DNA of 64,000 bases, from positions 48,094-112,093 of the forward strand of contig JANBPT010000023.1 of the NCBI GenBank assembly GCA_027575765.1, in the 5' to 3' direction. Origin of the DNA: Tieghemiomyces parasiticus (Eukaryota; Kickxellomycota; Dimargaritomycetes; Dimargaritales; Dimargaritaceae). The first letter of the stretch is position 1. Each line of letters starts with the position of its first letter. The notes under the pieces were generated by a model. The model searched no databases, had not been told where the DNA came from, and saw nothing but the letters and a program-made list of their open reading frames with translations. Positions 5,970 to 57,700 of the stretch are shown here, one piece after another. The position numbers were made by a program, and so were the translations under genes.

Positions 5970-8372
5970 ATGTCGACGATCAACGCCGCTGGGCTTGTAA
6001 TTTTTCGCTATGAGAGGAACCAGCCCGAGTACCTGTTAATTAACGACGCCTTTAACCACAAGCGCCACTGGTGCCCGCCTAAGGGCCGCGTGATTGGTCA
6101 AGAAGACGAGCTCAAGTAAGTACTACCTTCCGCTACACACACGGCCCGGAGACGTTGGCCAGTCTAGGCATGCTTCCCGGTCCGAGCTCCGCCAATGCGC
6201 AGTCACAAGCGTTGGTCGACGATCCGCTGGCTCGTTTCCCCCCTTATTAACCAGTTCGACATCCTGCGTGCTCTCCTCGTACACTCATCCTAACTATTAA
6301 AATTTCCTCTCTATAGGTGTGCCGTCCGTAGTAGTTTGGACGTGGTTGGCCTCGCCATCCAGGACCTTCAAGTCGACGACCAGTTCGCCGCCAACCTCAA
6401 GTACCTCTCCGGCACTCAGGCCAAGCATGTGGCCTACTATCTTGCCCGCCTGGTGGACCCCCACCGGGTGCTGCGCATTGGAGCCGGCCTCAACCACTGC
6501 TGGTTGCCCCTTGCCCCGGCTTTGGACAAGGCTGCCTACCCCAATATGCAAGACGTGCTGAACCAGGCCCATGCCTACCTCTTGCAACACCGCGACCGTT
6601 TCACCACCCCCTCCCCGCGTACCCGCCCGGATCCCGCCAACGGTCGTAGCGAAGAGCCCCGCCGTGTCTACCGCCCGCCCCACCAGCGTCAGTCGACCGA
6701 TGAAGGTTCTCCGCGCGGTCCCGGTACGGAATCCCCCTCTGAACCCGATGCCGAGATCAATCGAGGCTACCGGCGTTACAGCCGCGGCGAGGACAGCAGT
6801 ACCGGAAGCGGGATGTACCGTCCGCCTCGCCAACACCGGGCCAACTTCGATCCAACCCACGAAGAGGATGGTGATGGACACCCGCTGCACAGCCAGATGC
6901 GTAACCTGCGTCTCAATCCCGCCGCGACTGGGCCTGATGCTGCGCGCTTAGGTTCCAACGGCCGGGGCCCGTCCCTGTCCGAGAGTCCCATCTACAAGAC
7001 CCGCCTGTGTCGGACCTTCGAGATCGAGGGCGCCTGCCCCTACGGCCCGAAGTGCACCTTTGCCCACGGGCCTGAGGACCTGCGCGAGCGACCCCGGCCC
7101 CCGCCTGTCGCCCCGCAGGCCGGCGGTCCCTACCCACCAACCTCCGGAGCGGGTCCCCACCAGGGCCCTGGCCGTCCTTCCCCCTACGGCCTGACCGACC
7201 CGGCCATGAGCCGTACCAATAGTCAGGGCTGGACCCACCCGGCCTTCGCCCGGCCCGCACCCACTGAGAATCCCTTGTTCAAGACCCGTTTGTGCGACAA
7301 GTTTATGCGGGACAACTACTGCCCCTACGGTGACCGTTGCACCTTCGCCCACGGCTACGAACAACTCCAGAACCGTCCAAACGCCCCGCTGGCGTTCTCA
7401 GGCCACGAGCACCAAGGCCCGCCCTACCATGGTGGTGGGGGTGGCAGTGCCGGTGGTTACGGTATGAGCAGCAATATGCGCTCTCGGGAGCCGATCCTCC
7501 TCGAACCGCGTACCCCTCTGGCGACGCCCACCTCGTTCCTAGAGCACGCCAACCGGCTCGCCACGGTGGCCACCGCGACTCCCGTATCCGCATCTGTCCA
7601 GCGGTCTGTGGACACCGAGCCCGCATCCGCTGCCCCCGCCCGACCGGCTACCCCACCGGCCTCAACCCCAGCGCTGGTGGAACCCGCGCCCCAGGAAAAG
7701 GGCCGCGGTAAGAAAAAGCACCAGAACCACGAGGAGGTCCAGCGTCGCCCGCGTATCGTCGAGGTCGATGCCAAGGAGTTTGCCAAGTTTGAGCAACCCC
7801 CGCCCAAGCTGCGCGAAGCGACGGCTGCGGCCAATTCTACCTCCGCGTCGCCCCGCGTCGCCCAGGACGAGGCCCTGGCGGCCGAGCTGCGTCAGCTCCT
7901 ACCGAGCCCGCTCCTACCCGCTTCAGGCACCGCCCCGCCCAAGGCGTTGACCGCCCTGAGCAAGGAGGTGACCCGCTTCGAATTCCGCCACGATGTGTCG
8001 AAGCAGCAAATGTTCCACATCCTCATCCCGGCCCTCTTTGAACAGGGCGGCACTTCCACCGCCGCACCGACCCCGGAGCGGATCCAATCCCTGCTGGCCC
8101 ACTACCGCCCGCTGTTTGCCGGATACCTCAAATCGCCTGCGGACCAACGTCTGCTGCTGAACGCCTGGGACCGGCACATCACAGCTCACTCGAAGGCCTG
8201 GCTCTCCCGGGCCGCCGTGGTCTTCAAGCTCAACTACGACCTGGATCTGGTCGACGAAGAGGTGTTCCTGGCCTGGAACGCCGAAGCGCTGGCCGACAGT
8301 GAGCTCAAAAAGAAAGTGGCTCCGTTCGTAGAGTGGCTGGCCACCGCCGAGGAAGAGGATGAGGATGAGTGA
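5970..8372 (+). CDS. Fusion: degenerate Ap4A-hydrolase-like Nudix, tandem CCCH zinc fingers, eIF5-type W2 domain
   Basis: Two exons, 5970-6115 and 6317-8372 (gtaagt..ag), 733 aa. Residues 1 to about 145 align end to end with asymmetrical Ap4A hydrolase (NUDT2): AAGLVIFR start, HWCPPKGR, then KHVAYYLARL and LNHCWLPL in the second half. The Nudix box is degenerate: G39, E45 and R53 remain, but the REUxEE core reads RSSLDV, so metal-binding glutamates 54, 57 and 58 became S, D and V. Residues 275-299 (YKTRLC lead-in) and 370-394 (FKTRLC) are perfect CX8CX5CX3H fingers of the tristetraprolin/Cth type, separated by about 75 residues instead of the usual 18. After a Pro/Ala-rich linker, residues ~595-733 form a W2 (eIF5C) domain with EEVFLAW and a final FVEWL plus acidic tail, as in eIF5. 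Family knowledge: TTP fingers bind AU-rich mRNA elements; W2 domains contact eIF2 and eIF3. A role as an mRNA-specific translation or decay regulator is inference. Confidence 0.88.
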
Positions 8373-10430: not shown

Positions 10431-13400
10431 ATGGCGGAAGAGGTCGATGTCGAGAAGCAGCACCAAATCGACGAGCGCTTAGGATTTCACCGTTATCAAG
10501 AAGGACCAGAGAAGCTGGGATGGCTCGTTAATATCCAACCGGTAGGTCAAAGTCTTCACTCTGCTTGGAATCCGCGCACTTGTGCCAGAGATATAGCAAA
10601 GCTCATTGGTCCATCGACATCGAATCGGCCCACTGGCATGAGCACTGGCTACGCATAGCGATGCGAGGGTGCCTACAGGCGGTCTGTAGCACAACGGGCA
10701 CTTTTCTTAACTGTGCCCTTTCCCTACACTGGTCGACTCACACCGCCTTATCTTTTAGACTACCGTATCGAGCGTCGACAAGAAGTCCACCCGCTCGGCA
10801 GTGGACCTCTACTTCCTTGAAGAGGACGGCGAATACTTTAAATGCACCCTGGCCTACGATCCGTACTTTTACGTGATTTGCAAGGTAAGTCAGGCACTAT
10901 CGTCTAGCATGCCCGGCACTCAGCCATGTCGGGTTCGGGTCATATGCATCACACGGCGCCTTTTCCAATATCCTCACGGCCACAACCTTTCCTCATTTGA
11001 TCCATTTTATTTTCGATTCTGCTTCGACCATCTTGATTATCCACAATGATAGCCCGGTACCGAGAGCGATGTTGACGAGTACCTGCGTCGCAAATTCGAA
11101 AGAATCATCCAGAATGTGGTTAAAGTCCAAAAGACCGACCTGCACCAGGTGAGTACCATTTGGTGATCCAAGGAAACAGGGCTTGAGAAGAAATGGATCC
11201 GCGTTACCAGCCCCACAAGTTTAAAACGCAAGGTTACCAATGACTGACTGTCGCTCCTGCTGGCCTCCCTGACGACTAACCTGCCCGATTTCGCCCGACC
11301 CTTTGTCCCTTACCGACCGACGTTTTCCAACCAGCCGAATCACTTGGTCGAGCCACCCCGGACCCTGCTCAAGCTGATATTTCGTAACACGCAGGAGCAG
11401 ATGCAGGTCCGCCGAGAGCTGGAGCCCATCATCCGGAAGAACAAAGCCCGGGCCCAGGTTATGGACACCTACACCACCATGCTCAGCAGCCGACCGGAGG
11501 GCAACGGCGCTCGCATCCTCGACCCCATGGACTGCATCTCCGACATGCGCGAATACGATGTCCCCTACTACGTTCGCGTAACCATTGACAATAGTGAGTC
11601 ACCCCACACGCCTGAGTCATCCTGGTCTTCGACTGAGATGGCTGGTCAGATCAGTGGCTAGTAGAGACATGTCAACGTACATTTTCACTAACGCTGCACC
11701 CCATCTCATCCCTACCCAACTTCAACGAACCTCTTCTCTCGACCATTCCTCTCCCCCCTCCCCTCCTCAACGCCAGATATCCGCGTCGGACTATGGTACA
11801 ATATCAAGGCGCTACCTGCCGGTGAGCTGCAAATCACACCACGGCCCGACCTGGTCAAACGTGCGGAGCCCATCGTTCTGGCTTTTGATATCGAAACTAC
11901 TAAGCTGCCTCTCAAATTCCCCGATGCTGCCTTCGACATGGTCATGATGATATCGTACATGGTAGACGGCCAGGTAAGGCGCCGTGTTTAACCGGCCTGC
12001 TCCCGCTCATCGCACCTTTCCAATAACAGATTCCCATAATCTAACCTCCTCATCTGGCATTCTGTCATCCAACTGCTCCGCACCTGCCCCCATTATCAGG
12101 GCTACCTCATTACGAACCGCGAGATCGTGTCATCCGATATTGAGGACTTTGAGTACACCCCGAAACCTGAGTACGAGGGCCCGTTCATTGTTTTCAATGA
12201 GAAGAACGAAGTAAGCATTTCGACTTGACAACTACGTCCCACCGTGCCCCATTCCAAAGGGGGCGCATATTGATGTGAGACCACGGTGCCAAAATACTGA
12301 CTTTGCCCGACCACTACGTTTTTCTCCGCCCCCGACTATTCCACTCCGGCGGCGGTTTTAGAAAGCTCTCCTGCGCCGTTTCTTTGAGCATTTCCAGGAG
12401 GTTAAACCCACCGTAATTGCGACCTACAACGGTGATGCTTTCGACTGGCCATTTGTCGAGGCCCGGGCAATCTTTCACGGCCTGGATATGTTCCAGGTAA
12501 GTCATCAAGTGTAATCTATTATGTTTACCGCCGTTTCCCTCCCTTCCGCTTAAACTCCGCATCTGTCCCGACCACGCGTTACTCACATCCCCTAATTAAT
12601 TTTTTCTGCCCACCTCCCCCATCTATACCCAGGAAATCGGATTCTTCAAGGACAGCTCCGACGAGTACAAGAGTCGGGCGGCCATCCACATGGACTGCTA
12701 CCGCTGGGTCAAGCGTGACAGCTACCTTCCCGCGGGGAGCCACGGTCTCAAGGCTGTGACCACCGCCAAGCTGGGGTATAATCCAATGGAGCTGGATCCG
12801 GAGGACATGACCCCTTACGCGGCCGAGAAACCACAGGTCCTGGCACAGTACTCCGTGTCCGATGCCGTGGCTACCTACTACCTGTATATGAAGTACGTGC
12901 ACCCGTTCATCTTCTCTTTGTGCAACATCATCCCCCTCATCGGCGACGAGGTGCTCCGCAAGGGGTCCGGTACGCTGTGCGAGATGCTGCTCATGGTGGA
13001 GGCTTACGAGGGCAACATCATTATGCCCAACAAGCACGTTGATCCGCATGGCCGCATGTTCGAAGGCCACCTTATCGAGTCTGAGACCTACGTCGGTGGC
13101 CACGTTGAGGCGCTGGAGGCTGGTGTGTTTCGCAGCGATATCCCCGAGTCGTTTAAGGTCGTGCCTGCCGCTGTACAGCGCCTGATGGATGAGGTGGACG
13201 CCGCCCTACGCTTCAGTATCGAAGAAGAGGCTCAAAAGGCCCTGTCCGACGTGACAAATTACGATGAGGTCCGGGACGCCATCCTTACGCAGCTGACCAC
13301 CTTGCGCGACGCCCCTGTACGCACCGATCCGCCACTCATCTATCACTTGGACGTGGCAGCCATGTACCCCAACATCATCCTGACTAACCGGTTGCAGCCC

Positions 13401-16400
13401 GACGCCCTTGTCGACGAGGCCACGTGTGCACGCTGCGACTTTAACGTCCCGGGTAAGACGTGCGACCGGCGCATGACGTGGGCGTGGCGTGGGGAGTACT
13501 ACCCGGCCCAGCGCAACGAGTACAATATGATCCGTAACCAGCTGGAGACCGAGACCTTCGTACCCAATCACGGCAAGAAAGATGGGGCCCCGCGCAGGTT
13601 CCGAGACCTGTCCGCTGCCCAACAGGCCGAACTGCTGCAGGCCCGCCTGGGGGAGTACAGCCGCAAGGTGTACAAGAAAACCAAGGAAAGCCGGGTGGTA
13701 TCTCGCGAGAGCATCATTTGCCAGCGTGAGAACCCGTTCTATGTCGACACGGTGCGCAACTTCCGCGACCGCCGTTACGAGTACAAGGGGATGCACAAGA
13801 CGTGGAAGGGTAAATGCGACGAGGCCACCGATGCGGCCGCCCTGGACGAGGCCAAGAAAATGGTCGTCCTATACGACTCACTGCAACTGGCCCACAAGTG
13901 TATTCTCAATTCCTTCTACGGATACGTGATGCGCAAAGGCTCCCGATGGTACTCGATGGAGATGGCCGGGATTGTGTGCCTGACCGGGGCCACCCTGATT
14001 CAGATGGCCCGTCAGCTGGTGGAGCAAATTGGCCGTCCCTTGGAACTCGACACGGACGGGATTTGGTGTATCCTGCCCGCTGCCTTCCCGGAGAACTTCA
14101 CCTTCCAGCTCCGGAACGGCAAGAAATTGCCGATTTCCTACCCCTGCGTCATGCTCAACCACCTCGTACACGCCCAATTTACCAACCACCAGTACCACGA
14201 ACTGACCGACCCGACCCGCCGTTTGTATCGCACGCGCAGCGAGAACAGTATCTTCTTTGAGGTGGATGGGCCCTACCGCGCCATGATCCTACCTGCGTCC
14301 ACCGAGGCCGACAAGCTACTCAAGAAGCGCTACGCCGTGTTCAACCATGACGGGTCCCTGGCTGAACTCAAAGGGTTCGAGGTCAAGCGCCGCGGTGAGC
14401 TCAAACTCATCAAGATTTTCCAGTCGCAGATCTTTCGGGTATTTTTGGATGGTACCACCTTGGCAGAGTGCTATGCCGCGGTGGCGCGCCTGGCGAACCA
14501 ATGGCTGGACATTCTGTATGGTCGCGGAGCCACTCTGCATGACACTGAGCTATTCGAGCTCATTTCGGAGAACCGCAGCATGTCCAAGTCCCTGGCCGAG
14601 TACGGTGCCCAGAAATCCACCTCCATCAGTACTGCCCGCCGCCTGGCCGAGTTTCTGGGCGACCAGGTGGTCAAGGACAAGGGCTTGTCCTGCCAATTTA
14701 TTATCTCCGCCCGGCCCGCGGGCCTGCCTGTGTCAGAACGGGCCATACCAATCGCTATCTTCTCGGCAGAACCATCTATCCGTAAGCACTACCTACGCAA
14801 ATGGCTGCGGGACCCGGGACTGCAGGACATGGACATTCGCGGGATTTTGGACTGGAACTACTATATGGAGCGGTTCGGCTCGGTGATCCAGAAGCTCATC
14901 ACCATCCCGGCCGCCATGCAGCGCATCAGTAATCCGGTACCACGCGTCAAGCACCCGGATTGGCTGGCTAAGCGTGTGGCCATTCTCAACGACAAGCACA
15001 AGCAGCGCACCATCACCGACATGTTCCGCCAGCTTTCCGCGGCTAAGGGCACGGCATTAGAGCAGGGGAGTGGTGAGGACGGCAACGAAGTAGCCACGGC
15101 GGCGGCGAATAGCACCCATCCACCCGCGGCCCCCGACCTCGAGGATTTCGGCCGATTGGACCCCGCTGGTGCGTCGTCAAGGGGTACAGCCCGCCCCGCT
15201 GTCAGCCGCAAACGCGCTCGCTCCCAGGGTGGCGCCCCGCAGCTCGACCTGAGTGGGCTGCCTGACCCGACCACGGTCCCGCGTCCCGACGAGGACTACG
15301 CTGGCTGGCTGGCCTACGCGAAGCTGAAATGGCGGCGCCAGGCCCAGCACCGCGCCGCCCTACGTCACTACCACCAAGACCAGCCCGGTAGCGCCGGGGG
15401 TCCGGTCACCACCGACGCGGGCGCAGGCCCTGGTCCCAAACGAGCCGCTCTGGGCCTTGGATCTTACTTTGGCCGCACACGCGATCTTCTCGCCTCCGCC
15501 CCGTGGCAGATCGTTCAGGTCGTCCCTACTGACGTGCCCGGGGTTCTCCGCGCTTGGATTTTGGTCAACCGGGCCTTCCATGCAGTGCAGCTCGAAGTCC
15601 CACGTACCTTCTACGTGAACAGCCGAGTGCCCAATCCTGCTGGGGACGCCGCAGCGGCTTACGTGACGCCCGTGCGAAGCTTGACCCTACCGCGCTCGCA
15701 ACCGTGCCACCATCTGTACCGCTTCACCATGCCCGAAGCCGTTTTCCACCAGCACAGCAAGTCTTTCCGGACCCTGTTTAGCCACCCGGGGATACTCGGG
15801 GTGTACGAAACCCAGGTTGAGCCCGTGTATCGATTTCTGCTCACCGTGGGCTGCACCTCCGCGGTCACCTCGGCAGGACAATCTCTGTCAGCCGAACGGT
15901 CGACCAAGGGCGCTGAGCCGCGCTTTCATGTCGACCAGTTGATGCCCTCGGTAGGTGTGATTCGACCCAACCATGGCCACTACCTCGACCCACGCCGAAT
16001 TCCGCTGCACTACGTGTACCTGTTCCATTCCCGAGCCGATACCCGCGGGGTCTTCACGGTAATCAATCCTTCCGCGGGGACAGCGGACATATTTGTTGGC
16101 GATGGCGACCGCGGCCGTCTGCAGGTACCCAACCTGGAGACCCTCTACGCCGAACGGGTACGCGCCGCTGGGGTCCCGACCGACGCCGCCCAGCTGGCAG
16201 CCGCCAAACCCAGCGCAGACGCCCCGCACACCGGCTTTTCGTTTGCTTACCCGCCTTCCCTCACGATCCGGACTGAATTAGCCAAGTCGGATGCCAGCCT
16301 GGCCCAACTGGCCAATTCCGCTCTACATCGCGCCCTTGAGGCCAACCGGGGTCCAACGATGGTCGTACTGCATAGCGCCGTGCCCGCCGACCGGCTCACT

Positions 16401-18617
16401 ATGACGCTGCCGGCTCTCCGCGAGGCGCCTTACCTGACCATGCCCTTCCACCGCAGCGACCGGGCCCTACCTGTGCTGGACTGGCAGCGCTACGTAACGC
16501 GGCGGTTGGTAGGCCACTTTTTGAACGTCAGCCAGTGGGTCCATGAGCGCACTGCCCTAGCCCGGTATGCTGACGCCCCCGTGGGTAATATCGAACCCGA
16601 CCCGGCCCTGTTCCTGTCAGACCTTTTCCTGGCACGTAAGCTGGTGTCCCAGGGCGTTGTGCTATGGTGGTCATCCTCCCGTCGACCTGACCTCGGCGGC
16701 CACGAGGAGGACGAGCACGGCTGGCTGGGCGACATGGGGAACCAAGGGGCTTTAGAACTCAGTCACCCTGGACTCTATCCGGGCGTGTGCGTGGAGATCG
16801 AGGTGGGCAACCTAGCCGTCAATACCGTGCTGGCCTCGCATCTCATTCACGAACTGGAAGGCGGGGCCCTTGACGCGGCCGCACCTTCACGTTACACGTT
16901 GGACGCGACCGTGGGCGATGATCCCGGACCAGCCGTGGCGACGGAGTCATCCGCCTCGGCCGCTCTCCCATTGATGAGTACCGGTGCCATGGGGGACGCC
17001 GGTACTTCCCCACAAGTCTTCCAATTGCTGCGCAGTCTAGTCCGGGGGTGGTACACCGAGGTCGCCCGGCACCGCTACGCCTCTGAGACGTCGTCCAAGC
17101 CAACGGGTACCACGGAGCCATTGGCCGCTTTAGCCACCCGGGCGCAATTGCCCCCTAAGGCTCGGACCGCTGGCCCTGTCACCGCCGCGCCCAATCACTA
17201 TTACGCTGAGATTATGACGCAACACTTTTACCACTGGCTGACGCACCCGGGCAGTAAGCTGTACGACCCTTGCCTCTACGCCCTTGTACAGGGCCTGATG
17301 CGCAAAGTGCTCCTGCAACTGCTGGCGGAACTGCGGCGCCTGGGCGCTCGGGTCGTGTTTGCCAGCTTCCAAAAGATCATCGTGGCTACCAGCAAGGTCA
17401 CCCGCACGGCCGCAGCGGCCTACACCCAGTACCTCCTGAAAACTGTCACCGCCCAGCCTCTGTTCGACCAGATCGATCTGAACCCCGTGGAGGTGTGGGA
17501 CCGGCTGTTGTGGATGGACCCTGCCAATTTCGGCGGTGTATTATCCACGACGACCACCGTGACGGGCGGGCCCGGTAGGGCCGACGCCGACGAATCAGCT
17601 CCCTCCGCGGGCGGACAAAAGATAGAAATGTCCTGGAATCTACGCGAATACCTACCTCCGGCCATCCAGAACGATTTTGAGCTCCTGATTGCCGAGTTCA
17701 TCTACGCGCTACACACCCACCACGCCAAACAGCGTGGTGACGCCGCCTCCCTGTCCGTAGCGGTGGCCACCGAGGCCGAGGCTGGCGAAGTGGACCCCGA
17801 GGGCACAGCGGGTCCGCGTGAGAACGAGCCGGAGAATACGCCCATCGAGGATCCGACCTTCGCCCGTACCCTCGTGGGCCAACGCCTGACTCGAAAACTG
17901 TTCCGCCTTATTCCGGAGATCCACGCCAAGTGTGCCCCGCTGCCCGACGCCGAGCCGGCCGTGCAGGTCGCCGCCCGGTTCCCACGGCTCCCGGGCTCGT
18001 ACCTCCCGCTCACGAACCCGGCCCTCGAGTTCATCAAAAGCGCGTGCGCCGTACTCGGCCTGGTCGACGGGGCCGCCCGCGAGGTGAGGGTCATGAAGCG
18101 CAACGCGCTCGATCTGATCGGTATCCGCGAGTTTAGCCCGGAAGCCGTCTTCCATAACCCCAGCCAGTCCCTGCAACTCCCACAGGTCATCTGCGAGTAC
18201 TGTCATTACTGCCGCGACCTTGACTTCTGTCGAGACGCCGACCTCCTCCCGGTCGCCGTGGCCAACCCGGGTCCCAACGCCCCGGGGTTCCAGAGCCGAC
18301 CCTGGCTCTGCGTGGCCTGTCGCCACGAATACGACCGGGCCGGAATCGAACTGGCCCTCGTCCAGCTGCTCCTCCGCCGCGTGCAGGTCTACCAACTCCA
18401 GGACCTGCGGTGCAGTAAATGCCGGATGGTAAAGGCCGAAAACTTGCGCTCCCACTGTCCGGCCTGCGCGGCGCCGTTCGTCTCCGCTACCATCACCCAG
18501 GCCGACCTCCTCCGCCAGGTCTCTATCTTCCGCAACGTGGCTCGGTTCCACCAACTCCCCTTGCTTACGGAGACCGCCGAATGGATCCTCCAGAACGAAA
18601 CCCGTGCGGCTTCATAA
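10431..18617 (+). CDS. POL2: DNA polymerase epsilon catalytic subunit
   Basis: Eight exons: 10431-10541, 10759-10884, 11053-11148, 11335-11593, 11777-11973, 12100-12210, 12362-12496, 12633-18617; 2339 aa, close to yeast and human Pol2. It is the leading-strand replicative polymerase with 3'-5' proofreading. The exonuclease motif is intact (FDIETTK, D235/E237), with later exonuclease motifs [10 protein letters not shown] and [12 protein letters not shown]. Polymerase motif A is [11 protein letters not shown] (D585), motif [17 protein letters not shown], motif C ELDTDGIW (D818/D820). The inactive C-terminal polymerase half typical of Pol epsilon follows, then two zinc modules near the end (CEYCHYC...CVAC and CSKC...CPAC) that bind the B subunit. 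All seven introns lie in the first 345 codons; the remaining 1995 codons are one exon. Start chosen at the first ATG of the frame leading into GFHRYQ...LGWLVNI. The converging gene is deoxyhypusine synthase. Confidence 0.97.
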
Positions 18618-40920: not shown

Positions 40921-41963
40921 GGCTACTACGAAGCACGCTGTAAGTTACAGAATGGGTTGGCGAGAGGAATGGGGGTGGTGCTGTATAATGAGCAAAGTGA
41001 TCGGTTCAATGATGAATGGATAACGTATTAGCTGACACCAGTATGACATGGGCCGTTCCTCGAGCAGTAGGTCCGTGGGGAGGAATACGGGCTTGGTTAA
41101 GGGTAAACAGGTGGCCACGGCAATGTCTCTGCCCAGCCTACCCAGTTCGTCTGGGGCTTACCATCTGTAGGGGGGCGAGGTAGGCACCAGAGGGCCTTGG
41201 TGGTTTACCAGCTGGCACGGCGGGGATGTTCCCCCCCCCGCCAGTTGGGACCACAGGACGACACATTGCTGCAATGAGCGGGCAGAAGGTTCCGCCTGGG
41301 CCAGGCACACCGCAGCTGCGGCTAGCCGGTAGAGGAAAGGGACAACGAAGACACGTTGAACACCGCCGTTGGCCCCGATTGCCCCAAAGGACCGCCCGAG
41401 TTGAGGATCACCCCTGTCGCTCCCCTCCTTAGTCCTGCGCAGCTAAAGCCAACCGTTTACGCTCGATCGTTTGGCCTCTGTATTAGCGACTAGCAAGTCC
41501 GCTGGACCCCTCGCGCCGTACAATCGAACACCGTCCCCAGAGATGGGGTCGGCCTTGTAAGGCTAGCTCGGCACCAACGGTGCTCATAAAAGCACCGTGG
41601 CCTGCCCCCGGGACCATTAGCCTGGTCAACCGCTCGGTCATACTTCTGCCATCCGCTCCTTATCGTCACTTTCTGTGGCTTTTTTTTCTGGTACCGCACT
41701 CGCTGGCACACACCTACTCGCTCCATCTTTTTTAGTGTTACTACGAAACCATCAACCGCACAGTATCTCACTGGCGCCTAGTGCGTAACGTGTTCCTAAC
41801 CAGTCACCCGTCACAGCTACTTCCATCTGGACCCTGACTCCCGCGGCCGTCATACATCCTCACCCTCATCGATCCCATTGTCACCAATACCCTTGTACTA
41901 TTCCCCTCAAGGTCCATATAACTACCCATTTCTGTGTAGAATCCACCCCCCATCAGGCCCGCA
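40921..41963. promoter_or_regulatory. Divergent promoter region, SCY1 and acetyl-CoA transporter genes
   Basis: About 1 kb between divergent starts. C/T-rich just before 41964. Contains a run of nine C near 41230. Small open frames here match nothing. Confidence 0.35.
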
Positions 41964-43658
41964 ATGTCCAGCCCCGCTGACGTCCGGAAACGGATGCCCT
42001 ACGAGGAGGTGCCCGGGGAGGACCCGGCCGACAGTATACCCATCGCGACCTCCCCGTTAGCTGGTGCGCCGCTCCAGACCGCCGACGCCGCCTCCTGGCC
42101 CATGTCCTCGACTCAGCTTGCCGCCCCCGCCGCATCGGACAAGGCCGCGACGGTATCTACGCAGTCTGCCGCCGACGCCAGCGCGGTTCCCAGCAATTTC
42201 GTTAAGGACTGGCACAACATAGTGCTCCTGGTTGTGCTTTACCTGCTACAAGGCGTCCCTGTGGGCCTGGCCTTCGGCAGCATCCCGTTCCTGCTCAAGG
42301 CCAAGCTAAGCTACGCCCAGATCGCCGTCTTCTCGCTGGCCTCCTACCCGTACTCACTCAAGCTGCTGTGGTCGCCCATCGTGGACTCGCTATATGTGCC
42401 TTCGTTCGGCCGCCGCAAGACGTGGATCGTGCCCATTCAGTTGGCCATTGGCTTCCTCTGCCTCTGGCTTAGCACTACCGTCGACAGCTACCTGACCGAC
42501 CCGGCCCCGCACATGACCACCCTCACTCTGATCTTTTTGTCACTTGTTCTCCTCAGTGCTACCCAGGACATCGCCGTGGATGGCTGGGCCCTGACTCTAC
42601 TCTCCAAGGAGAACATGTCCTATGCCTCCTCATGCCAGACCATCGGCCTCAACACGGGCTTTTTCATGTCCTTCACCGTGTTCCTGGCCTTTAACTCGGT
42701 CGAGTTTAGTAACCGCTACCTCCGCAGCGTCCCCGGCGACGTGGGTGTCCTCCCCCTGGGCGATTACCTCTGGTTCTGGGCCATCATGTACTTTTTGGTC
42801 ACCCTCTATTTGGTTCTCTTCAAGGCTGAACAGCGTACTGACCCCGCCGAGGCCATGGGCGTCGCTGAAACCTATCAGACCATCTGGAGTATCATTCGCC
42901 TTCCGCACATGCGCCACTTCATCGCAATCATGCTGGTGGCCAAGCTGGGCTTCATTGCCAACGAGTCTGTCACCGCGCTCAAACTCCTCGAGAAGGGCTT
43001 CGGCAAGGAGGACTTAGCCCTCACCGTCCTGATCGACTTCCCGTTCCAGATCATATTTGGGTATTACGCCGCTAAGTGGAGTACCGGGGACAACCCCATG
43101 CGACCCTGGATCTACGCCTTCGTTGCCCGGCTCGTCCTGGCCGTCATCGACATGGTCATCGTGGCCTACTGCCCCACGGACGGCATTAGTACGGGCTACT
43201 TCGCCGTGGTGGTCGCTGCCACCGTCCTAGGCTCTTTCAGCAGCACCGTGCAATTCGTCAGCATCAGTGTCTTCATGACCAACATAGCCGACCCCATCAT
43301 CGGCGGCACCTACATGACTCTGCTCAACACTCTCAGCAACTTTGGCGGCACCTGGCCCAAATATTTTATCCTGGAGGCCGTCGACTACTTCACCGTGGCG
43401 ACGTGCAGTGTCCCGGACAAAGCCAGTAATGAATTTTCCTGTATCGATGAGGCGGGCAAGTCGCTCTGTGGCGAGCTGACCGGACAGTGTGTCACCGAAC
43501 GCGACGGTTACTACCTCGTCGGGGCCACCGGGATCGCCCTCGGTACCCTCTTCTTCTTTGGCTACATCTTGCCTGAGATCCGGCGGCTCGTCCGTATCCC
43601 TATCTCGGAGTGGCATCTCAAGAGTTCGAGGCCCAATGAGCTGGCCAAGGAGAAGTAA
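41964..43658 (+). CDS. Acetyl-CoA transporter, SLC33A1/AT-1 family
   Basis: Single exon, 564 aa, close to the human protein (549 aa). A ~78-residue polar N-terminus is followed by about 11-12 membrane segments of the major-facilitator fold. Family-specific stretches: LLQGVPVGLAFGSIPFLL in the first segment, YPYSLKLLWSPIVDS, FGRRKTWIVP, ATQDIAVDGWALTLL, GGTYMTLLNTLSNFGGTWP, and a Cys-containing lumenal loop before the last segment. These proteins import cytosolic acetyl-CoA into the ER lumen for acetylation of secretory proteins and glycans. The ATG at 41964 follows a pyrimidine-rich leader (gcaATGTCC). A polyadenylation-like AATAAA lies about 105 bases after the stop. Confidence 0.94.
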   Translation: MSSPADVRKRMPYEEVPGEDPADSIPIATSPLAGAPLQTADAASWPMSSTQLAAPAASDKAATVSTQSAADASAVPSNFVKDWHNIVLLVVLYLLQGVPVGLAFGSIPFLLKAKLSYAQIAVFSLASYPYSLKLLWSPIVDSLYVPSFGRRKTWIVPIQLAIGFLCLWLSTTVDSYLTDPAPHMTTLTLIFLSLVLLSATQDIAVDGWALTLLSKENMSYASSCQTIGLNTGFFMSFTVFLAFNSVEFSNRYLRSVPGDVGVLPLGDYLWFWAIMYFLVTLYLVLFKAEQRTDPAEAMGVAETYQTIWSIIRLPHMRHFIAIMLVAKLGFIANESVTALKLLEKGFGKEDLALTVLIDFPFQIIFGYYAAKWSTGDNPMRPWIYAFVARLVLAVIDMVIVAYCPTDGISTGYFAVVVAATVLGSFSSTVQFVSISVFMTNIADPIIGGTYMTLLNTLSNFGGTWPKYFILEAVDYFTVATCSVPDKASNEFSCIDEAGKSLCGELTGQCVTERDGYYLVGATGIALGTLFFFGYILPEIRRLVRIPISEWHLKSSRPNELAKEK

Positions 43659-50746: not shown

Positions 50747-51712
50747 TGTACAAATCTTCTGAGCGGGAATGTGGCAACGGTTAATAATGTGCGGATTCGT
50801 GTAGGAGTTAGTAATGCAGAAATGTAGAACCTGGGATTCGGGTTATGTCGGCCAGTCAATCGAAAGTTACCCCTTCGTACGCCAACTATCGGATATCACG
50901 CGTCCATCCATCCATCAGCCCACCCATGGTCAGAAATGGCTACTTCAACTTCATTGGGCTGTAGGCGCAGCGCAGGTGACTACGGCATCCATATTGGATG
51001 AGGGGATGGATGGATAGACGGTGGGCGGGCGGGTGGAGGATGGGTAAAGCAGGCGGCTCTACCTACTTTTGAAACACCGGTACGTACGGGGTTCGTGAAG
51101 AGAAGTGTAGAGAAGAGAAGGATCGATATCAAATTGGATGGGCTAGTCCCTGTATAACTTGGCTGAGTTTTCAATCATAGTGTGATGGGCCAGCTACAGC
51201 TCTGAAGGTGCAGGTGGCTTCACTAACTGCGGTGATGGTAGCAGGGGGGCCTATAGGGTTGTGCCATTAGTCTAGCGCTGCGACAAGCTAAGCTCACATC
51301 GTCGACCCGGCCTAGTCTCTATAAGCTAAGGGGGAAAGGGTAAAAAAAAAGTACCACGCGGGTCCCATTTATCAGGTTGGCCGGATGGAAAAATGTCAGA
51401 GGAACCACCACCACCCACCCACTGACATTGTCAATCTGCCAGCGATACTCCCGTATTCCTCCTATGCTCCCTGTTCCAACCGTGCCTATCTAAACCGGGC
51501 ATATGGCACGCGCGTGTTGTTGCTACCCTATAGATTCTCTATGCCCTAATTCTTAACTTCAACCCCTTAACCAATTCTTTGTCACGGTTTGGCCCGCCAA
51601 GAGAATTTGGTCACATTGAACTCTACTGTCATATTCACTGCCGCTTAATATCCCTTTTGGGGTCTTCACTTGCATAACCTCCTTATATTGACCGTCCTTC
51701 CAATCATCCACT
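50747..51712. promoter_or_regulatory. Divergent promoter region, RPL6 and CWC21
   Basis: 966 bases between divergent starts. Contains a repeated tccatcca-type stretch near 50905 and its complement (ggatggatgg) near 51002. No canonical ribosomal-protein promoter box was recognised. Confidence 0.35.
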
Positions 51713-52849
51713 ATGTACAACGGTATCGGCCTCGACACGACCCGCGGGTCAGGCACAAATGGCTACGTTGTCCGCAATATGGGCCATCTAAAGCCACGGC
51801 GGGACCACCGTAACGGTGCGTCTGCAACAGTCGATCCGAACGAACCGTTTGCCCATCTAGGCCGCGAGCGGGACACAGTCAACGGCCGGACCGCCAACCC
51901 GGAGCTCATTTTACACGAGCAGAAGCGGCAGGTTGAGCTGCGTTGTCTAGAGCTGCAAGACACGTTGGAGGAGGAAGGAAAATTAAGTGAAGCCGATATC
52001 GAGGCCCGCATCAGTGCGCTTCGGGAGACCCTCCTGGCCGAACTGGCTGAAGGACCCGAGGAAGGCCAAATGGTCAGTGTGACGGAGGCCCATCTGAACA
52101 CCATTCGACCCCACGAGACCCATAAACTGGCCGCCGCGAAGCAGCGTGAGAATGAACGTATGGAGCAGGCGCTGGGAATCGGTGAGTACCGTCGTGAACG
52201 GCAGTCCATGTCACCCGTACGTCGGAGCCGATCCCCTCGCCGTGGTAATTATGGTTCTGACCGTTACCGTCGTAGCCATGGCGATGACCGCCCCCGCCAC
52301 TATCGCAGCCGCCGGCGCTCCTACTCGCGCTCGTCCGGGTCGTACTCGCGGTCACGATCACCTAGTCCCCGATTCAGCCGCCGTCGTCACCGCCACCGAT
52401 CGCCATCTCCTCCGCGTCGGGCCTCGCGTCGCCACCGTCGTGGAAACAGCACTTCATCCGCCCGTTTCAGTAGTAGCAGTAGCCGCAGTCGGTCGCGGTC
52501 CACCTCACCCGCTTACCGACGCAGTTCATTCCGGCGCGGCGAAAGCCGTCGGCGCCAGTACTCCCGTTCTTCTACCCCGTCCGACCGCTCCTCCTCCGAT
52601 TCCAGCCGCAGCCCGGCCTCTCGCAAACCTTCACGAACCCACTCCACCCGGCGAAGCCATCGTTCGCCATCCGCCTCCCGCTCTCGCTCTCCCTCGGCTC
52701 GTCGCTCTCGCCGGCGCTCACCGTCGTCCTCTCGCCGCCCGCAGCGCAGTATCTCACCTCATGGATCCGTCGGACGTGGGTCCCCGGGGCGCCACTCATC
52801 TGTCTCGTCCTCCCGGTCCGTATCCCGCCATAGTGAGCGATCCCGCTAA
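51713..52849 (+). CDS. CWC21: Spliceosome factor Cwc21 / SRRM2-type cwf21 domain protein with RS tail
   Basis: Single exon, 378 aa. The first 19 residues MYNGIGLDTTRGSGTNGYV are the near-invariant start of Cwc21/SRm300 proteins, so the start codon is certain. The cwf21 domain follows: residues ~60-110 with HEQKRQVELRCLELQDTLEE. The second half (from about residue 160) is an arginine-serine domain of some 200 residues, longer than in budding yeast Cwc21 and closer to the animal SRRM2 arrangement. The protein binds Prp8 and the catalytic spliceosome, supporting fidelity of exon joining. Stop at 52849, with an AATAAA 73 bases beyond. Confidence 0.95.
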   Translation: MYNGIGLDTTRGSGTNGYVVRNMGHLKPRRDHRNGASATVDPNEPFAHLGRERDTVNGRTANPELILHEQKRQVELRCLELQDTLEEEGKLSEADIEARISALRETLLAELAEGPEEGQMVSVTEAHLNTIRPHETHKLAAAKQRENERMEQALGIGEYRRERQSMSPVRRSRSPRRGNYGSDRYRRSHGDDRPRHYRSRRRSYSRSSGSYSRSRSPSPRFSRRRHRHRSPSPPRRASRRHRRGNSTSSARFSSSSSRSRSRSTSPAYRRSSFRRGESRRRQYSRSSTPSDRSSSDSSRSPASRKPSRTHSTRRSHRSPSASRSRSPSARRSRRRSPSSSRRPQRSISPHGSVGRGSPGRHSSVSSSRSVSRHSERSR

Positions 52850-53142: not shown

Positions 53143-54753
53143 CTAATCGTCATCCTCATCGCTGTACACTAATTTTTGCCGTTTAGTAACCCGCTTCCCG
53201 CCGGTCTGGGGTCGGTCAACGGGCTCCGCGGCGCGGTCATCCATACCATCGTCGTCAGAGTACCGTGGTGACGCCGAGAGTTCACGTCGACCGGCTGACC
53301 GGTGGTAGCTTTCCATCCCACGCTGCTTAGCCTGTAGGATACGACGTTCGCGGGCATCGTCCTCTTCCTCGCTGCCATCATTCTTGTCGTATTCATCATC
53401 TCGGCCATGGTGACGACGCGAATAACCGTGCGGTCGGTCGGCCGTATCGACCTCATCGGCTGAATCGCCATATTCGACGTCTTCATCTTCATCGTCCACC
53501 ACGAACCCATCGTCCTCATCGGCATCGTACCGACCTCCACTGCCGCGCGGACGGCGGCCGGCCGTACCGTACGGGTCGCGGTCGGTGGCGTACTCCTCGG
53601 CCTCGAGGGAGGCCTCATTAAACTCGGCGCTCCCACCAGGGTTGGTCATGCTGTAGCGCATGGCCTTCCGTTGCCGAGACGCTTCGAGCCGTCGGATGGC
53701 CTTCAACTTTTCGTTCTCCTGAAGCTCCATCTCGCGCTTGAGTTGTTCCGGATCCTTGGTGGTATTGAACAGCTTGGTACGAACTTTTTTCTTGTGGCGG
53801 TCGGTAATGCTCTTGGTGAACTTCTTGTGCGTCTGACTCGTGGTACTGGACGGCCGGAAGAAAAGGTGGTGACCCACCGCACAGCACCCCTGCTGGATCT
53901 CGTCCTGCGGTGGTAGCGTGGTCAACAGACTATGCGGGTGGTCGGTGGCTTTCACAATCACGTCAAAGTACTCCTGGCCCAGCGCGAGCGACATGGTGCC
54001 ATCCGACCACTTGACGAAGCGAGCATTGGATTCGGCCTGTCAAAAGGAAGCGAGGCGAAAGTGGGTAGGTGACGCGGCAGAGAAGTTAATGAAAGTATAA
54101 GCTGGGGGAGGGGGTTCTGGCCGAAGGTCAAGAGTAAGAGGGTGTGTCGCAAGGCATTCCGAATATTTGATACAGACCGTCCGGTCTACCTTTCTGCTAC
54201 CTACCTTGCGCGGTTCGCTGGTTGCCGCGGCCTTGACCTCACGCCAGCGGATGGTGTTTTCGAGTTGCAGTTTGAGCGCCTCCGGGTGTTCCTCCTCCGT
54301 CCGCTCCTCGTACGTCGCGGGATCGAAAGCCTGGGGGTCGACATGAAGGAATCCGGGGATCCTGGAGATGTAGTGATCCGCACCGGGGACGAATAGCTGC
54401 GGGGTGGCGGAGATAGTCACCGGGTGCGGGGGCTGCGGAGCGGCTTCGCCAAAGTCCAGCTGCGATTGGTCACGGTCTAGGTGATCTTCATCGTCTTCAT
54501 CCTCGTCGACGACACGGTTGCGGTGGCTGCTAGTCGTCCGGCTCATGGGAGCGTCGGCAGGTTCGTCGCCAAACAGATCGCCCAGACCGTCGTCATCGTT
54601 GCCATTTGCATCGGGGCCGTCGTCTGCGGACTCGTGCGCTGGGCGAGGGGAGACGGCCGCGTCGGACTGCTGGCCGTCGCTCTCTCCGCCAAACAGGTCA
54701 TCCAGCGCGGCTGGTTCTTGGCTACCGACGCGTTCGGCCATCGGCGACGACAT
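53143..54753 (-). CDS. LEO1: Paf1 complex subunit Leo1
   Basis: Two exons on the minus strand, 54753-54205 and 54036-53143 (gtaggt..gacag), 480 aa. Leo1 is part of the Paf1 elongation complex that travels with RNA polymerase II and supports histone modification. The N-terminal ~120 residues are acidic (LDDLFGGESDG, LGDLFGDEPAD). The Leo1 core spans the intron: PGADHYISRIPGFLHVDP, TIRWREVK, then NARFVKWSDGTMSLALGQEY, FDVIVK and HHLFFRPSSTTSQTHKKFTK. The C-terminal third is a basic coiled coil (LEASRQRKAMRYSM) followed by a highly acidic and Arg-rich tail ending DEDDD. All are typical of Leo1. The start is the first ATG of the exon; another at 54741 would remove four residues. Confidence 0.94.
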
Positions 54754-57700
54754 GGTGCGAAATGAACAGGCGACAATGAGTGGCAAAGGGAATATCGCAC
54801 AAGGATCGGTGAGAAACGTAGTGGGCGAAATGACCGAGGGAAAACCAGAACGGTGTCGGAATGGGCTGGAGGATAGTGCACAGATGGCGTCTGAACTAAA
54901 ACGGGAGTTGTGATGTAAGCATGATACTGTGACCGTTCTCAATTATCGTGTCGACCGGTATCAGCGTCATCTGGCCGCTCTCATTCGCGCAACGGGGCAA
55001 GCATTGCCATTGGGCTTAGGATTCTCATGGAGCAGGACCCCACGAACACCCCCTTAGCCGGCAGTCCTCCGCTGCGGGGGGGAATAGACTTTACCCCACG
55101 GTCCTTGGTGCTGGCTTCGTAAACCGGTACTTCAGACTACTACACCAAGTGTGAATGATGGCTAGCTGATATCCACATTATCCCTGAGACACCTAGAGTT
55201 ACAGCCATGACTAGTTGGGTACCTTGCCAGATGACCTTGCTCTCCAGCTAACGACTAGGCCGGATAGTCCCCTGGCACTTTCGATCTATACCCCATCCGT
55301 CGGGTGGTTTGAGATACCTATCGGGTAAACTTTCTTTACCCCCCAACTCGGTCTGCAAAACTAACCCCGTCAGTTTGTCCTTCAAGCTTAGTGTGTGGCT
55401 GCCAATCCCATCATAACCCCTACCCGCGCCCTCCAAATGGGGTACTGCGATGCTTGGCATCAAGGAGGACTGTTTTACATGATGTAGAAAATCTTTAGCC
55501 AAACGTGTCCATTGGGTAAACAGGATGAAGGTGGTTGCTGGAAGGGGGGGGCCAGATCTTGTCGAAGGGGTGAAAGTGATCCACTGGGGCGAGTAGTTTT
55601 GGCTGATCGCCGGGGGATTTTCATTTTTATTCCCCCTGGTAGAAAGGCAGAGCCGAAGGGGTTGTCGTGCCGGTCCGTACGGCGATCGTTCAGAGTAGCC
55701 AACTAACTGGCACTTTCTAGGCCCGTCAAGAGGTGGCATCTGGGGAAGCAATCCGGAACTGGTTAGTCCGTTCGCAGCTGGTCAAGGTGGCGCGATGGTT
55801 GCAGGGCGAAGCAGGTAATGAGGCAAAGTGGGCGGCCAGTATCAAAATCAATAATGTAACCGCCACCAGTCCTTAGGTGTGCAAGTGGAGCTGGAGTGAA
55901 TGACGCCAGACCACGGTAGTCTCGCTTTAAAGGGGACCGTTTAAAAGGTGCTGGTGGGTCGCAAGGATAATTGATATTGATGCAGAGTTTGGTCGCCAGC
56001 CTGCGTGGCACAAGCCAAGCCACCGATTTAAGGGGGTCAGTTATATAGGGGAACCCTACAACCTCGGATGGCCAAGCGACCGCCACCGAATCGTATCGGT
56101 GATGTCGAAGGTTTGGTAACCTGTTTAGCGACCGCCAAGGGGCTTAACGCCCGTGTCGGCGACGCAGGTCATCTGGGGCACGACAATGGGCCCTCTATTG
56201 GGCACAATCGCAGGCGTCAGCGTCGTACATGTGCAACGATGCCAGATCGCTGGCCAAATCAAGTCCTATCTGGCGCTACTCCTCCGCCCCCGGTTGCCGC
56301 ACACCGAACGGTGCGGGAAATTGGGATAGGGATGGCGGGAATAGTAGTGACATTCAAGCACCACAAGGTATTAATCTGGCAATCCCTTTGAATGGGCGTG
56401 TTTACAATACAATACGTCGCTGAGGGGGGGGGCAGGTAGGTTATCGTACCATTACCCGACCTGCCTACCACCGAATTTCAGCGAACTACATATCATCAAG
56501 CATGTTCTAGAGCTGCCTAGTTCAATTTATACGCCGACAAGGGAGACAACAGCGGCCGCTTGGTTAAGCAGCGCCAAAGCTAATCGTTCACAACCACATC
56601 ATAGCTCTATATGACGCTATAGTGGACATGGGGGGGGGCTAGAGTCGCCGAATGGCCGTAGAAGGCTAGAAACTTGGAAGTATTTTACCAATGCCTTGAC
56701 ATATTCTACTATTAGTGCAAGGTGACGTTATTTACCCGGCCACTTCTTGCCTCATATCAAGATGCGAATCAGTAAGGAGTTCAGTCGGCCGATGGAATAT
56801 CCGAAAGGTGAATTCTGCTACTAATATCGAATTCGGTCTTCGCGTTTCGCCACCGCCACTACCTCCAACTGTAGATCGCAACTCCAACGCTCATGGCGAC
56901 GCAGCAAGTCCGAAATGCCATAGCAGGTTGGGGGGTTTGAAGGTGGCAAAGGTTTAACTTGGGTCACCATTTTGGCAGGTGAAGACTGGTTATCACAGTG
57001 CTACGACTACACTGCCCGCTATTTCGGGTGCCGCCGAGCGACAAGTACTCGGTCTGATATAACGTCCGGTCAGCCATGATGCAACGTGGGCGACATGTAA
57101 GTTGTTATTATTTTTAGTGTGGCCGGGGTCCCTGCCATTGGTAGATCGGTTGGCCCAGATGCCACCGTGGCTGGAGGTGTTGCTTGGCTCTATCACTGGG
57201 ACGGGAGGAGGTTCAAAGCGCAGGTGGGCAGATATGAAGTCGGGTGATCAGCCCGCTCCTGCCGATGGTCGGTTGGTCTGAAAAATGTTGTTAGTTGAAC
57301 GGCAGGCCATGGCCGCACCACCGAGATACCTGCTACTCCTCGGCCTCGCGACGGCCGCGGTTACACGGGCCGCCGCCTGTGGGCCACAGTTTGGTTGCTG
57401 CTGTTGGCCTCCTAGGCCTGGCCGACCAGTTGGGCTACGCGGCTGGGCTCCTTGTGCACCTAGCGTACCCCCCCTCCCCCTTCCTCCACCACCACCTGCA
57501 CCAGTGGCTGTCGACTGGGTGCACCATGACCCTGGTCCAACCGCTCACTCGCCGACGCCCCCGTCACACCACCAGTGCCCTCCCTCCTTCGCTTCACTCC
57601 GTCATAATCCCACCTTGCATATATTTTTCTTTTCCATCCAAACGGCCCGTCTCACACACACTTGGCCCCTCCCCGACCCATTGTTTATCCCACAACCGTG

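What the first reader, a model, noticed from the sequence alone, without database searches (positions are those of the whole stretch)
5970..8372. Three-way fusion: dead Ap4A-hydrolase Nudix + TTP-type tandem CCCH fingers + eIF5 W2 domain
One 733-aa gene joins a NUDT2-like fold whose REUxEE core has become RSSLDV, two perfect CX8CX5CX3H fingers with KTRLC lead-ins, and a C-terminal W2 domain with the EEVFLAW and FVEWL-acidic boxes of eIF5. I know of no described protein with this order. TTP fingers select AU-rich mRNAs, W2 domains bind eIF2/eIF3, and a pseudo-Nudix could sense Ap4A or a cap-like dinucleotide without hydrolysing it. Together this suggests an mRNA-specific translation or decay regulator linked to a stress nucleotide. 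The domains are seen in sequence; the joint function is inference.
Basis: partly seen in the sequence, partly recalled or inferred. Interest (0 to 1): 0.87.

Follow-up and report, generated by a model that had tools for sequence, protein, structure and literature searches.

The report
Fungal dead-Nudix, zinc-finger, eIF5-tail protein
One gene of the mycoparasitic fungus Tieghemiomyces joins a nucleotide-hydrolase fold whose catalytic motif is broken, two RNA-binding zinc fingers and a translation-factor tail; the same protein occurs in many early-branching fungi and looks like an mRNA-bound translation regulator that may sense a stress nucleotide.

Summary
Exons 5970-6115 and 6317-8372 encode 733 aa: an Ap4A-hydrolase (NUDT2) fold, two CX8CX5CX3H fingers and a W2 domain. 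The second haplotype carries the same gene. It is not unique: searches gave 122 proteins (one unrelated), and those with an organism name are all non-Dikarya fungi. The architecture is in print as fungal NUDIX subfamily A (PMC12210691), there treated as an enzyme. What I add: (1) the last Glu of REUxEE is gone in 106 of 106 readable boxes, so the Nudix is very probably a pseudoenzyme throughout, while pocket positions matching NUDT2 K42, Y82, K89 and F128 are kept. The commonest replacement (E to I) matches NUDT21/CFIm25, an inactive Nudix that binds Ap4A. (2) The fingers carry Arg/Lys where TTP has the Glu of KTEL and lie 75 residues apart (TTP 18), so MEX-5-like U-rich binding is likelier than strict ARE selection; the genome has a separate TTP-like gene. 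(3) The W2 is eIF5/eIF2Bε-like, without the eIF5 N-terminus, beside separate eIF5-like and other W2 genes. Best reading: an mRNA-tethered eIF5-tail mimic repressing or tuning initiation, with a dinucleotide-type ligand site. Ligand, RNA targets and direction of control are inferred.

The parts
5970..8372 (+). whole gene, 733-aa protein (start codon to stop codon, one intron)
   Evidence: identical deposited protein P0001; same structure on the second haplotype
5970..6115 (+). exon 1: start codon and first part of the Nudix domain (residues 1-49, codon 49 split)
   Evidence: the N-terminus MSTINAAGL is shared with Dimargaris cristalligena P0002
6116..6316 (+). intron, 201 bp, GT...AG
   Evidence: a 201-bp intron at the same place on C649
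6317..8372 (+). exon 2
5970..6605 (+). Nudix domain, residues 1-145 (intron inside), Ap4A-hydrolase fold
6084..6353 (+). degenerate Nudix box, residues 39-61 (intron inside): RSSLDV in place of REUxEE
7008..7067 (+). CCCH finger 1, residues 280-299, lead-in YKTRLC
7293..7352 (+). CCCH finger 2, residues 375-394, lead-in FKTRLC
7845..8354 (+). W2 HEAT domain by model, residues about 559-728 (Pfam W2 stretch 658-733)
8256..8369 (+). acidic/aromatic boxes of the W2: EEVFLAW and FVEWLATAEEEDEDE (within residues 696-733)
   Evidence: alignment to eIF5 2iu1

Best explanation
The protein is an mRNA-tethered mimic of the eIF5 C-terminal domain with a pseudo-Nudix ligand site. The two KTR-type CCCH fingers bind U-rich stretches of selected mRNAs. 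The W2 domain, without eIF5's GTPase-activating N-terminus, binds the eIF2beta tail and/or eIF3c as eIF5 and 5MP do, and so competes locally with eIF5 or eIF2B and lowers or tunes initiation on the bound mRNAs. The Nudix domain, related to Ap4A hydrolases but very probably unable to cleave, holds a dinucleotide polyphosphate or a cap-like end and uses it as a switch. Shown by computation: the domains, their conservation, loss of the last catalytic Glu, retention of residues that line NUDT2's pocket. Inferred: absence of catalysis, the ligand, RNA specificity, eIF binding, direction of control, and any coupling between the ends.
For: One gene on both haplotypes; residues 1-140 have 6 synonymous and 0 replacement differences, whole gene dN/dS 0.153. 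Same architecture in Mucoromycotina, Mortierellomycota, Glomeromycotina, Calcarisporiella, Basidiobolus, Olpidium, Coemansia, Dimargaritales and chytrids. Last Glu of the box 0 of 106; on a quick tree it never varies as present/absent, while Glu58 needs at least 6 and Glu110 at least 5 changes of state. Kept: K42 106/106, K89 106/106, Y82 105/105, an aromatic at F128 106/106; K42, Y82 and K89 are among only 14 of 140 columns that are 99% identical. In Ap4A hydrolases Lys42 and Tyr82 (human) and Lys94 (Plasmodium match of K89) contact a bound sulphate and Tyr82/Phe128 stack adenine (PMC4734340, passages). NUDT21, box RLX2EIXGR (PMC5389931, passage), is inactive and binds Ap4A, Kd 2.4 uM, at its RNA site (PMC7705103, PMC4856261, passages). 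Arg/Lys at the KTEL Glu in both fingers; MEX-5 (6pmg) has KTKLC, and MEX-5 sites are 9-13 nt with six or more U (PMC9846511, passage). W2 domains of eIF5, eIF2B-epsilon and 5MP bind eIF2beta K-boxes (PMC12224906, passages).
Against: No binding, expression or genetic data for this gene. The box is not wholly eroded: its first Glu (NUDT2 E49) is kept in 106 and its Arg in 105 of 106, and a changed box does not by itself prove a dead site: PMC5389931 names working hydrolases with two substituted box Glu, though these keep the last one (passage). NUDT2 Glu130, which contacts the adenine amino group, is Ser/Thr/Asn in all 106, so Ap4A itself may not be the ligand; and human K89 did not touch the sulphate. 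In the window's own protein four more acidic positions changed (NUDT2 E58 to S, E61 to D, E79 to N, E110 to A), so the site may be more decayed in Dimargaritales. Nothing links Nudix to W2 except the chain: the linkers are disordered in the model and the fingers only reach pLDDT 50-77. Which W2 partner is preferred cannot be told.
Confidence: 0.4

Rival explanations
1. The W2 recruits eIF3/eIF2 to the bound mRNA and so activates translation, or marks mRNAs for storage; the same parts with the opposite sign.
For: The eIF5 C-terminal domain binds eIF2beta, eIF3c and eIF1 in the multifactor complex (PMC12224906, passages); nothing in the sequence fixes the sign.
Against: The protein lacks the eIF5 N-terminal domain (one search lists no such family), and the known free-standing W2 regulator, 5MP, competes with eIF5 and eIF2B.
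Confidence: 0.2
2. The pseudo-Nudix binds RNA or an mRNA 5' cap rather than a free alarmone, as NUDT21 binds UGUA, making a three-point mRNA clamp.
For: The commonest replacement at the last Glu (Ile, 63 of 106) is the one in NUDT21 (PMC5389931, passage); NUDT2 Glu130 is changed in 106 of 106, which may alter base choice.
Against: The residues kept are those of the Ap4A-hydrolase pocket (K42, Y82, K89, an aromatic at F128); NUDT21's RNA-binding residues were not compared here.
Confidence: 0.2
3. The Nudix is only a folded protein-protein interaction module and binds no nucleotide.
For: Repeated loss of Glu58 and Glu110 in several lineages; Glu130 replaced throughout.
Against: Lys38, Lys85 and Tyr78 (NUDT2 K42, K89, Y82) are among the 14 of 140 columns that are 99% identical, which a bare scaffold would not explain by itself; other residues in that set may be structural.
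Confidence: 0.15
4. The Nudix is an active Ap3A/Ap4A hydrolase, in line with how PMC12210691 treats the subfamily.
For: Glu58 is kept in 74, Glu/Asp61 in 95, Glu49 in 106 and Glu110 in 81 of 106. The paper reports well-preserved boxes with at least two Glu in all new subfamilies and docking favouring Ap3A/Ap4A, NAD+ and NADPH (results parts 1-2 of 3).
Against: The last Glu is absent in 106 of 106. Three Glu ligate metal alike in DHNTPase, Ap4A hydrolase and RppH (PMC5526541, passage; it does not name them for Ap4A hydrolase). In the window's protein E58 and E110 are gone too. That the last Glu is a chief metal ligand in MutT is recalled.
Confidence: 0.05

Closest known systems
Fungal NUDIX subfamily A (Pasterny et al. 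2025, BMC Genomics, PMC12210691)
   Same: NUDIX with, in most members, W2 (PF02020) and zf-CCCH (PF00642); fungi only; most likely distantly related to NUDT2; 84 proteins. This gene is a member by architecture
   Different: The parts I read (abstract, results parts 1-2 of 3, discussion) treat it as an enzyme with a preserved box and do not discuss loss of the last Glu, finger lead-ins or W2 type; its figures and supplements, which describe each subfamily, were not seen, nor whether this species is included
NUDT2, asymmetric Ap4A hydrolase
   Different: Catalytic box broken, Glu130 replaced, fused to RNA-binding and translation-factor domains
NUDT21/CFIm25
   Same: Catalytically inactive Nudix in an RNA regulator; last Glu of the box replaced by Ile, as in 63 of 106 members here; binds Ap4A
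   Different: Nuclear 3'-end processing factor, no fingers, no W2 (recalled); a different Nudix family
TTP/ZFP36 and yeast Cth2/Zfs1
   Same: Two CX8CX5CX3H fingers
   Different: Arg/Lys instead of the KTEL Glu; spacing 75 instead of 18; W2 at the C-terminus where TTP has a NOT1-binding domain (PMC8180021, start of abstract in the listing). The same genome has a separate TTP-like gene with KTELC and 18-residue spacing (L037)
MEX-5
   Same: Basic residue at the KTEL Glu position (KTKLC in 6pmg)
   Different: Nematode protein without Nudix or W2 (recalled)
5MP/BZW (eIF5-mimic) and eIF5
   Same: W2 HEAT domain with acidic/aromatic ends; like 5MP no eIF5 N-terminus
   Different: 5MP has an MA3 HEAT domain in place of Nudix and fingers (PMC12224906, passage); the genome has separate frames that look like eIF5 and 5MP

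Membership tests
Fungal NUDIX subfamily A | NUDIX + zf-CCCH + W2 in one protein | tested here: met
Fungal NUDIX subfamily A | Restricted to fungi | tested here: inconclusive
   All organism-named hits listed are non-Dikarya fungi; one search listed 120 of 179, candidates were capped, and some hits are unnamed metagenome proteins
Active Ap4A hydrolase (NUDT2) | Fold | tested here: met
Active Ap4A hydrolase (NUDT2) | Complete Nudix box GX5EX7REUXEEXGU | tested here: not met
   0 of 122 match; last Glu 0 of 106 readable boxes
Active Ap4A hydrolase (NUDT2) | Pocket residues K42, Y82, K89, F128 (Tyr/Phe) | tested here: met
   window K38, Y78, K85, Y123; but E130 is N125
TTP family | Two CX8CX5CX3H fingers | tested here: met
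TTP family | KTEL lead-ins | tested here: not met
   KTRL in both fingers here; no Glu at that position in 121 first or 119 second fingers
TTP family | 18-residue spacing between fingers | tested here: not met
   75 here, 29-123 in the family, P0119 set aside; 18 in TTP
TTP family | NOT1-binding motif at the C-terminus | not tested
   The C-terminus is a W2 domain; linkers were not searched for NOT1 motifs
eIF5 | W2 C-terminal domain | tested here: met
eIF5 | N-terminal GTPase-activating domain | tested here: not met
   No such Pfam match; a separate 409-aa eIF5-like frame exists (L028)
5MP/BZW | MA3 HEAT domain before the W2 | tested here: not met
   No MA3 family; the region between fingers and W2 is mostly disordered in the model
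NUDT21-type pseudo-Nudix | Nudix fold with broken box that binds Ap4A and RNA | not testable with these tools
   Box pattern similar in most members (PMC5389931); binding needs experiment

The most novel reading that the evidence does not exclude
An ancient fungal alarmone receptor for translation: a pseudo-Nudix that reads Ap4A, another dinucleotide or a non-canonical cap, built into an RNA-bound eIF5 mimic, so that stress nucleotides switch initiation on chosen U-rich mRNAs without a change in eIF2alpha phosphorylation. It would be a eukaryotic receptor for Ap4A-type signals acting on translation.
Probability: 0.25. Interest if true: 0.88.

Novelty: new member of a known kind. Interest (0 to 1): 0.6.

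Why it matters
Ap4A rises under stress in very different organisms, but what reads it in eukaryotes is mostly unclear. A pseudoenzyme with the Ap4A-hydrolase pocket, found across the early-branching fungi and joined to mRNA-binding and initiation-factor domains, makes the question directly testable in culturable fungi. It also questions a published reading: subfamily A is catalogued among hydrolases, yet no member examined keeps the last Glu of the box. And it warns that the fingers should not be assumed to follow the TTP code.

Tried and rejected
Artefact or two neighbouring genes: rejected; the same structure stands on a second contig, with purifying selection, and relatives have the same order. 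Species-specific fusion: rejected by the same lists. That this gene is the genome's TTP: rejected, and my own first reading here was wrong. The zf-CCCH genome search gave 25 hits, and besides this gene only one contig pair had two hits close together, with no KT lead-ins, so I first took this gene for the only TTP-like pair. The exon-by-exon search had missed it. Two other hits (L035, L036) lie in an ATPase-like GKTELC and two (L033, L034) in frames with stops. No score changes, since nothing rested on the absence. Another NUDT2-like gene: the 16 NUDIX places were only screened for intact boxes (6 have one) and not classified. NUDT21's RNA-binding residues were not compared. In the capped fold list (50 rows, mostly Nudix) eIF5 chains are not shown; that excludes nothing. 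A fold search with the W2 alone was not run. No Rfam or tRNA match in the window. NCBIfam gave only a weak MutT1 match far below its cut-off. Literature: no held paper has Nudix + CCCH + 'W2 domain'; one search listed 15 of 22 papers, none relevant by title; (10 of 151 listed) found the paper that describes the architecture. The primary MEX-5 paper was not seen, only a review passage; that an Arg/Lys-to-Glu exchange restores TTP-like specificity is recalled, as is TRPM2's dead Nudix as ligand sensor. The tree is a quick search with long branches that the tool flags as unsure. 16 of 122 proteins had no readable box (truncated, divergent, or the unrelated P0119) and were left out of the box counts and the tree; Glu-to-Asp at position 110 was counted as a loss.

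Full report
The sequence. The finding at 5970-8372 is real. Exon 1 (5970-6115) and exon 2 (6317-8372), separated by a 201-bp GT-AG intron, give a 733-aa protein. The same protein is deposited for Tieghemiomyces parasiticus, IWQ60_000841, a member of the Kickxellomycota, order Dimargaritales. The 46.5-Mb assembly seems to hold two haplotypes: contig C649 carries a second copy, also 733 aa with the same intron length, with 36.5 synonymous and 17.5 replacement differences by the counting method used, dN/dS 0.153, and none of the replacements in residues 1-140.

The family. Three searches of 5.8 billion proteins returned 122 distinct proteins that I could read (count). One search reported 179 at E <= 1e-10 and listed 120, and searches scored only the about 8000 candidates sharing most words, so absences prove nothing. 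One of the 122, P0119, is an unrelated 12-finger protein. Every hit that carries an organism name is a fungus outside Dikarya: Dimargaritales, Coemansia, Mucoromycotina, Mortierellomycota, Glomeromycotina, Calcarisporiella, Basidiobolus, Olpidium, and chytrids including Piromyces. Of 68 members scanned one by one, 68 match zf-CCCH, 65 W2 and 63 NUDIX at E <= 0.001. So this is a conserved architecture, probably old.

It is in print. A 2025 survey of 183 fungal proteomes (PMC12210691; abstract, results parts 1 and 2 of 3, and discussion read) lists NUDIX subfamily A: 84 proteins, fungi only, 'most have W2 (PF02020) and zf-CCCH (PF00642)', most likely distantly related to NUDT2. It states that the new subfamilies have a well-preserved signature with at least two glutamates, notes several substitutions in the motif, treats the proteins as enzymes and reports docking to Ap3A, Ap4A, NAD+ and NADPH. 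In those parts I saw no discussion of a dead site in subfamily A, of the fingers' lead-ins, or of the W2 type; figures and supplements were not seen.

The Nudix is very probably a pseudoenzyme in the whole family. Of 122 proteins 106 have a readable box. The last Glu of REUxEE is present in 0 of 106 (Ile 63, Ala 13, Thr 11, Leu 7, Val 6, Gln 3, Ser, Asn and Lys 1 each); the strict box matches 0 of 122. The first Glu of REUxEE (NUDT2 E58) is kept in 74, Glu/Asp at E61 in 95, Glu at E110 in 81, and the box's earlier Glu (E49) in 106. On a quick tree built with the nine box residues masked, E62 has no change of state, E58 at least 6, E110 at least 5 and E61 at least 3, so further acidic residues were lost repeatedly; the window's protein has E58S, E61D, E62V and E110A in NUDT2 numbering. 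By contrast NUDT2 K42 and K89 are kept in 106 of 106, Y82 in 105 of 105, Tyr or Phe at F128 in 106 of 106, H37 in 90 of 106; K42, K89 and Y82 lie among only 14 of 140 columns that are 99% identical. In Ap4A hydrolases Lys42 and Tyr82 (human), and Lys94 (the Plasmodium match of K89), contact a bound sulphate, while human K89 does not; Tyr82 and Phe128 stack the adenine, and Glu130 seems to contact its amino group (PMC4734340, passages). That paper numbers the human His as 32; by the chain printed I take it to be H37. Glu130 is Ser, Thr or Asn in all 106, which speaks against plain Ap4A recognition and perhaps for another base. NUDT21 has the box GX5EX7RLX2EIXGR (PMC5389931, passage), with Ile at the same last Glu; it is inactive and binds Ap4A at its RNA site, Kd 2.4 uM (PMC7705103 and PMC4856261, passages). 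Caution: the same PMC5389931 passage names E. coli sugar-nucleotide hydrolases with two substituted box Glu (RLX2AEXGU); these keep the last Glu, which is the one lost here.

The fingers are not TTP-type in detail. The Glu of KTEL is Arg or Lys in both fingers: first finger KTRL 115, KTKL 4, KTRM 1, RTRL 1 of 121; second finger KTRL 82, KTKL 29 and 8 variants of 119, none with Glu (P0119 set aside; P0050 and P0118 show one finger only). Spacing is 75 residues here and 29-123 in the family against 18 in TTP. MEX-5, with KTKLC in 6pmg, binds 9-13-nt sites with six or more uridines (PMC9846511, passage). I therefore expect U-rich, relaxed binding. The genome also has a separate TTP-like gene at L037 (C721): KTELC in finger 1, which an apparent intron splits, and, 18 residues after its His, a second finger with KTKLC. 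So this protein does not stand in for TTP.

The W2. Its ends carry the acidic and aromatic boxes. One search shows no eIF5 N-terminal domain and no MA3 domain. The genome has separate W2 frames: a 409-aa eIF5-like protein (L028), a 5MP-like C-terminus (L026) and an eIF2B-epsilon-like piece (L032), named by eye from the translations after the Pfam genome search. W2 domains of eIF5, eIF2B-epsilon and 5MP bind the eIF2beta K-boxes, and 5MP competes with eIF5 and eIF2B (PMC12224906, passages).

Reading. The most economical account is an mRNA-bound eIF5-tail mimic that tunes or represses initiation, with a non-hydrolysing dinucleotide-type site at its N-terminus. Sign, ligand and coupling are not shown. 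The claim I hold firmly is narrower: a conserved fungal family, already catalogued, whose Nudix lacks the last Glu of the box in every member with a readable box (106 of 106) and keeps residues that line the pocket.

Noticed in passing
L037 (C721:2220-5234), minus strand of the locus: A separate TTP-like gene: KTELC with an apparent intron inside finger 1, and a second finger with KTKLC after 18 residues. The exon-by-exon zf-CCCH search had missed it.
   Followed up: partly
window 12600-18617 +: Large frame (2005 aa) matching the DNA polymerase epsilon catalytic subunit: thumb, DUF1744 and both C-terminal zinc-finger families.
   Followed up: partly
window 53143-54942 -, 51692-52849 +, 41940-43658 +, 58508-60937 +: Frames matching Leo1 (two adjacent frames), cwf21, an acetyl-CoA transporter and a mechanosensitive channel.
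   Followed up: no
P0001 residues about 243-250 and 525-541; linkers of relatives: Short shared motifs in the disordered linkers: LPLDSQR before the fingers in 49 of 121 proteins, an M(K/R/Q)NLN-like motif in 40 (MRNLRLNP in the window), and a (K/R)(V/I)VE-like motif before the W2 in 62. They may bind partners; not tested.
   Followed up: partly
P0001 residues 439-451 and P0002-P0004: REPILLEPRTPLA after finger 2 is shared by the four Dimargaritales proteins and not seen in the other 17 rows.
   Followed up: no
L005 (C1010:21759-21905) and L006 (C202): A different tandem of CCCH fingers with almost no linker, in a 233-aa frame, on a pair of contigs.
   Followed up: no
P0119: An unnamed metagenome protein with 12 CCCH-type motifs, caught by the family search, without Nudix or W2 among its listed Pfam domains.
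   Followed up: no
P0009, P0013 and other relatives: Many relatives are named in databases as bis(5'-nucleosyl)-tetraphosphatase or NUDT2-type, which the broken box makes doubtful.
   Followed up: yes
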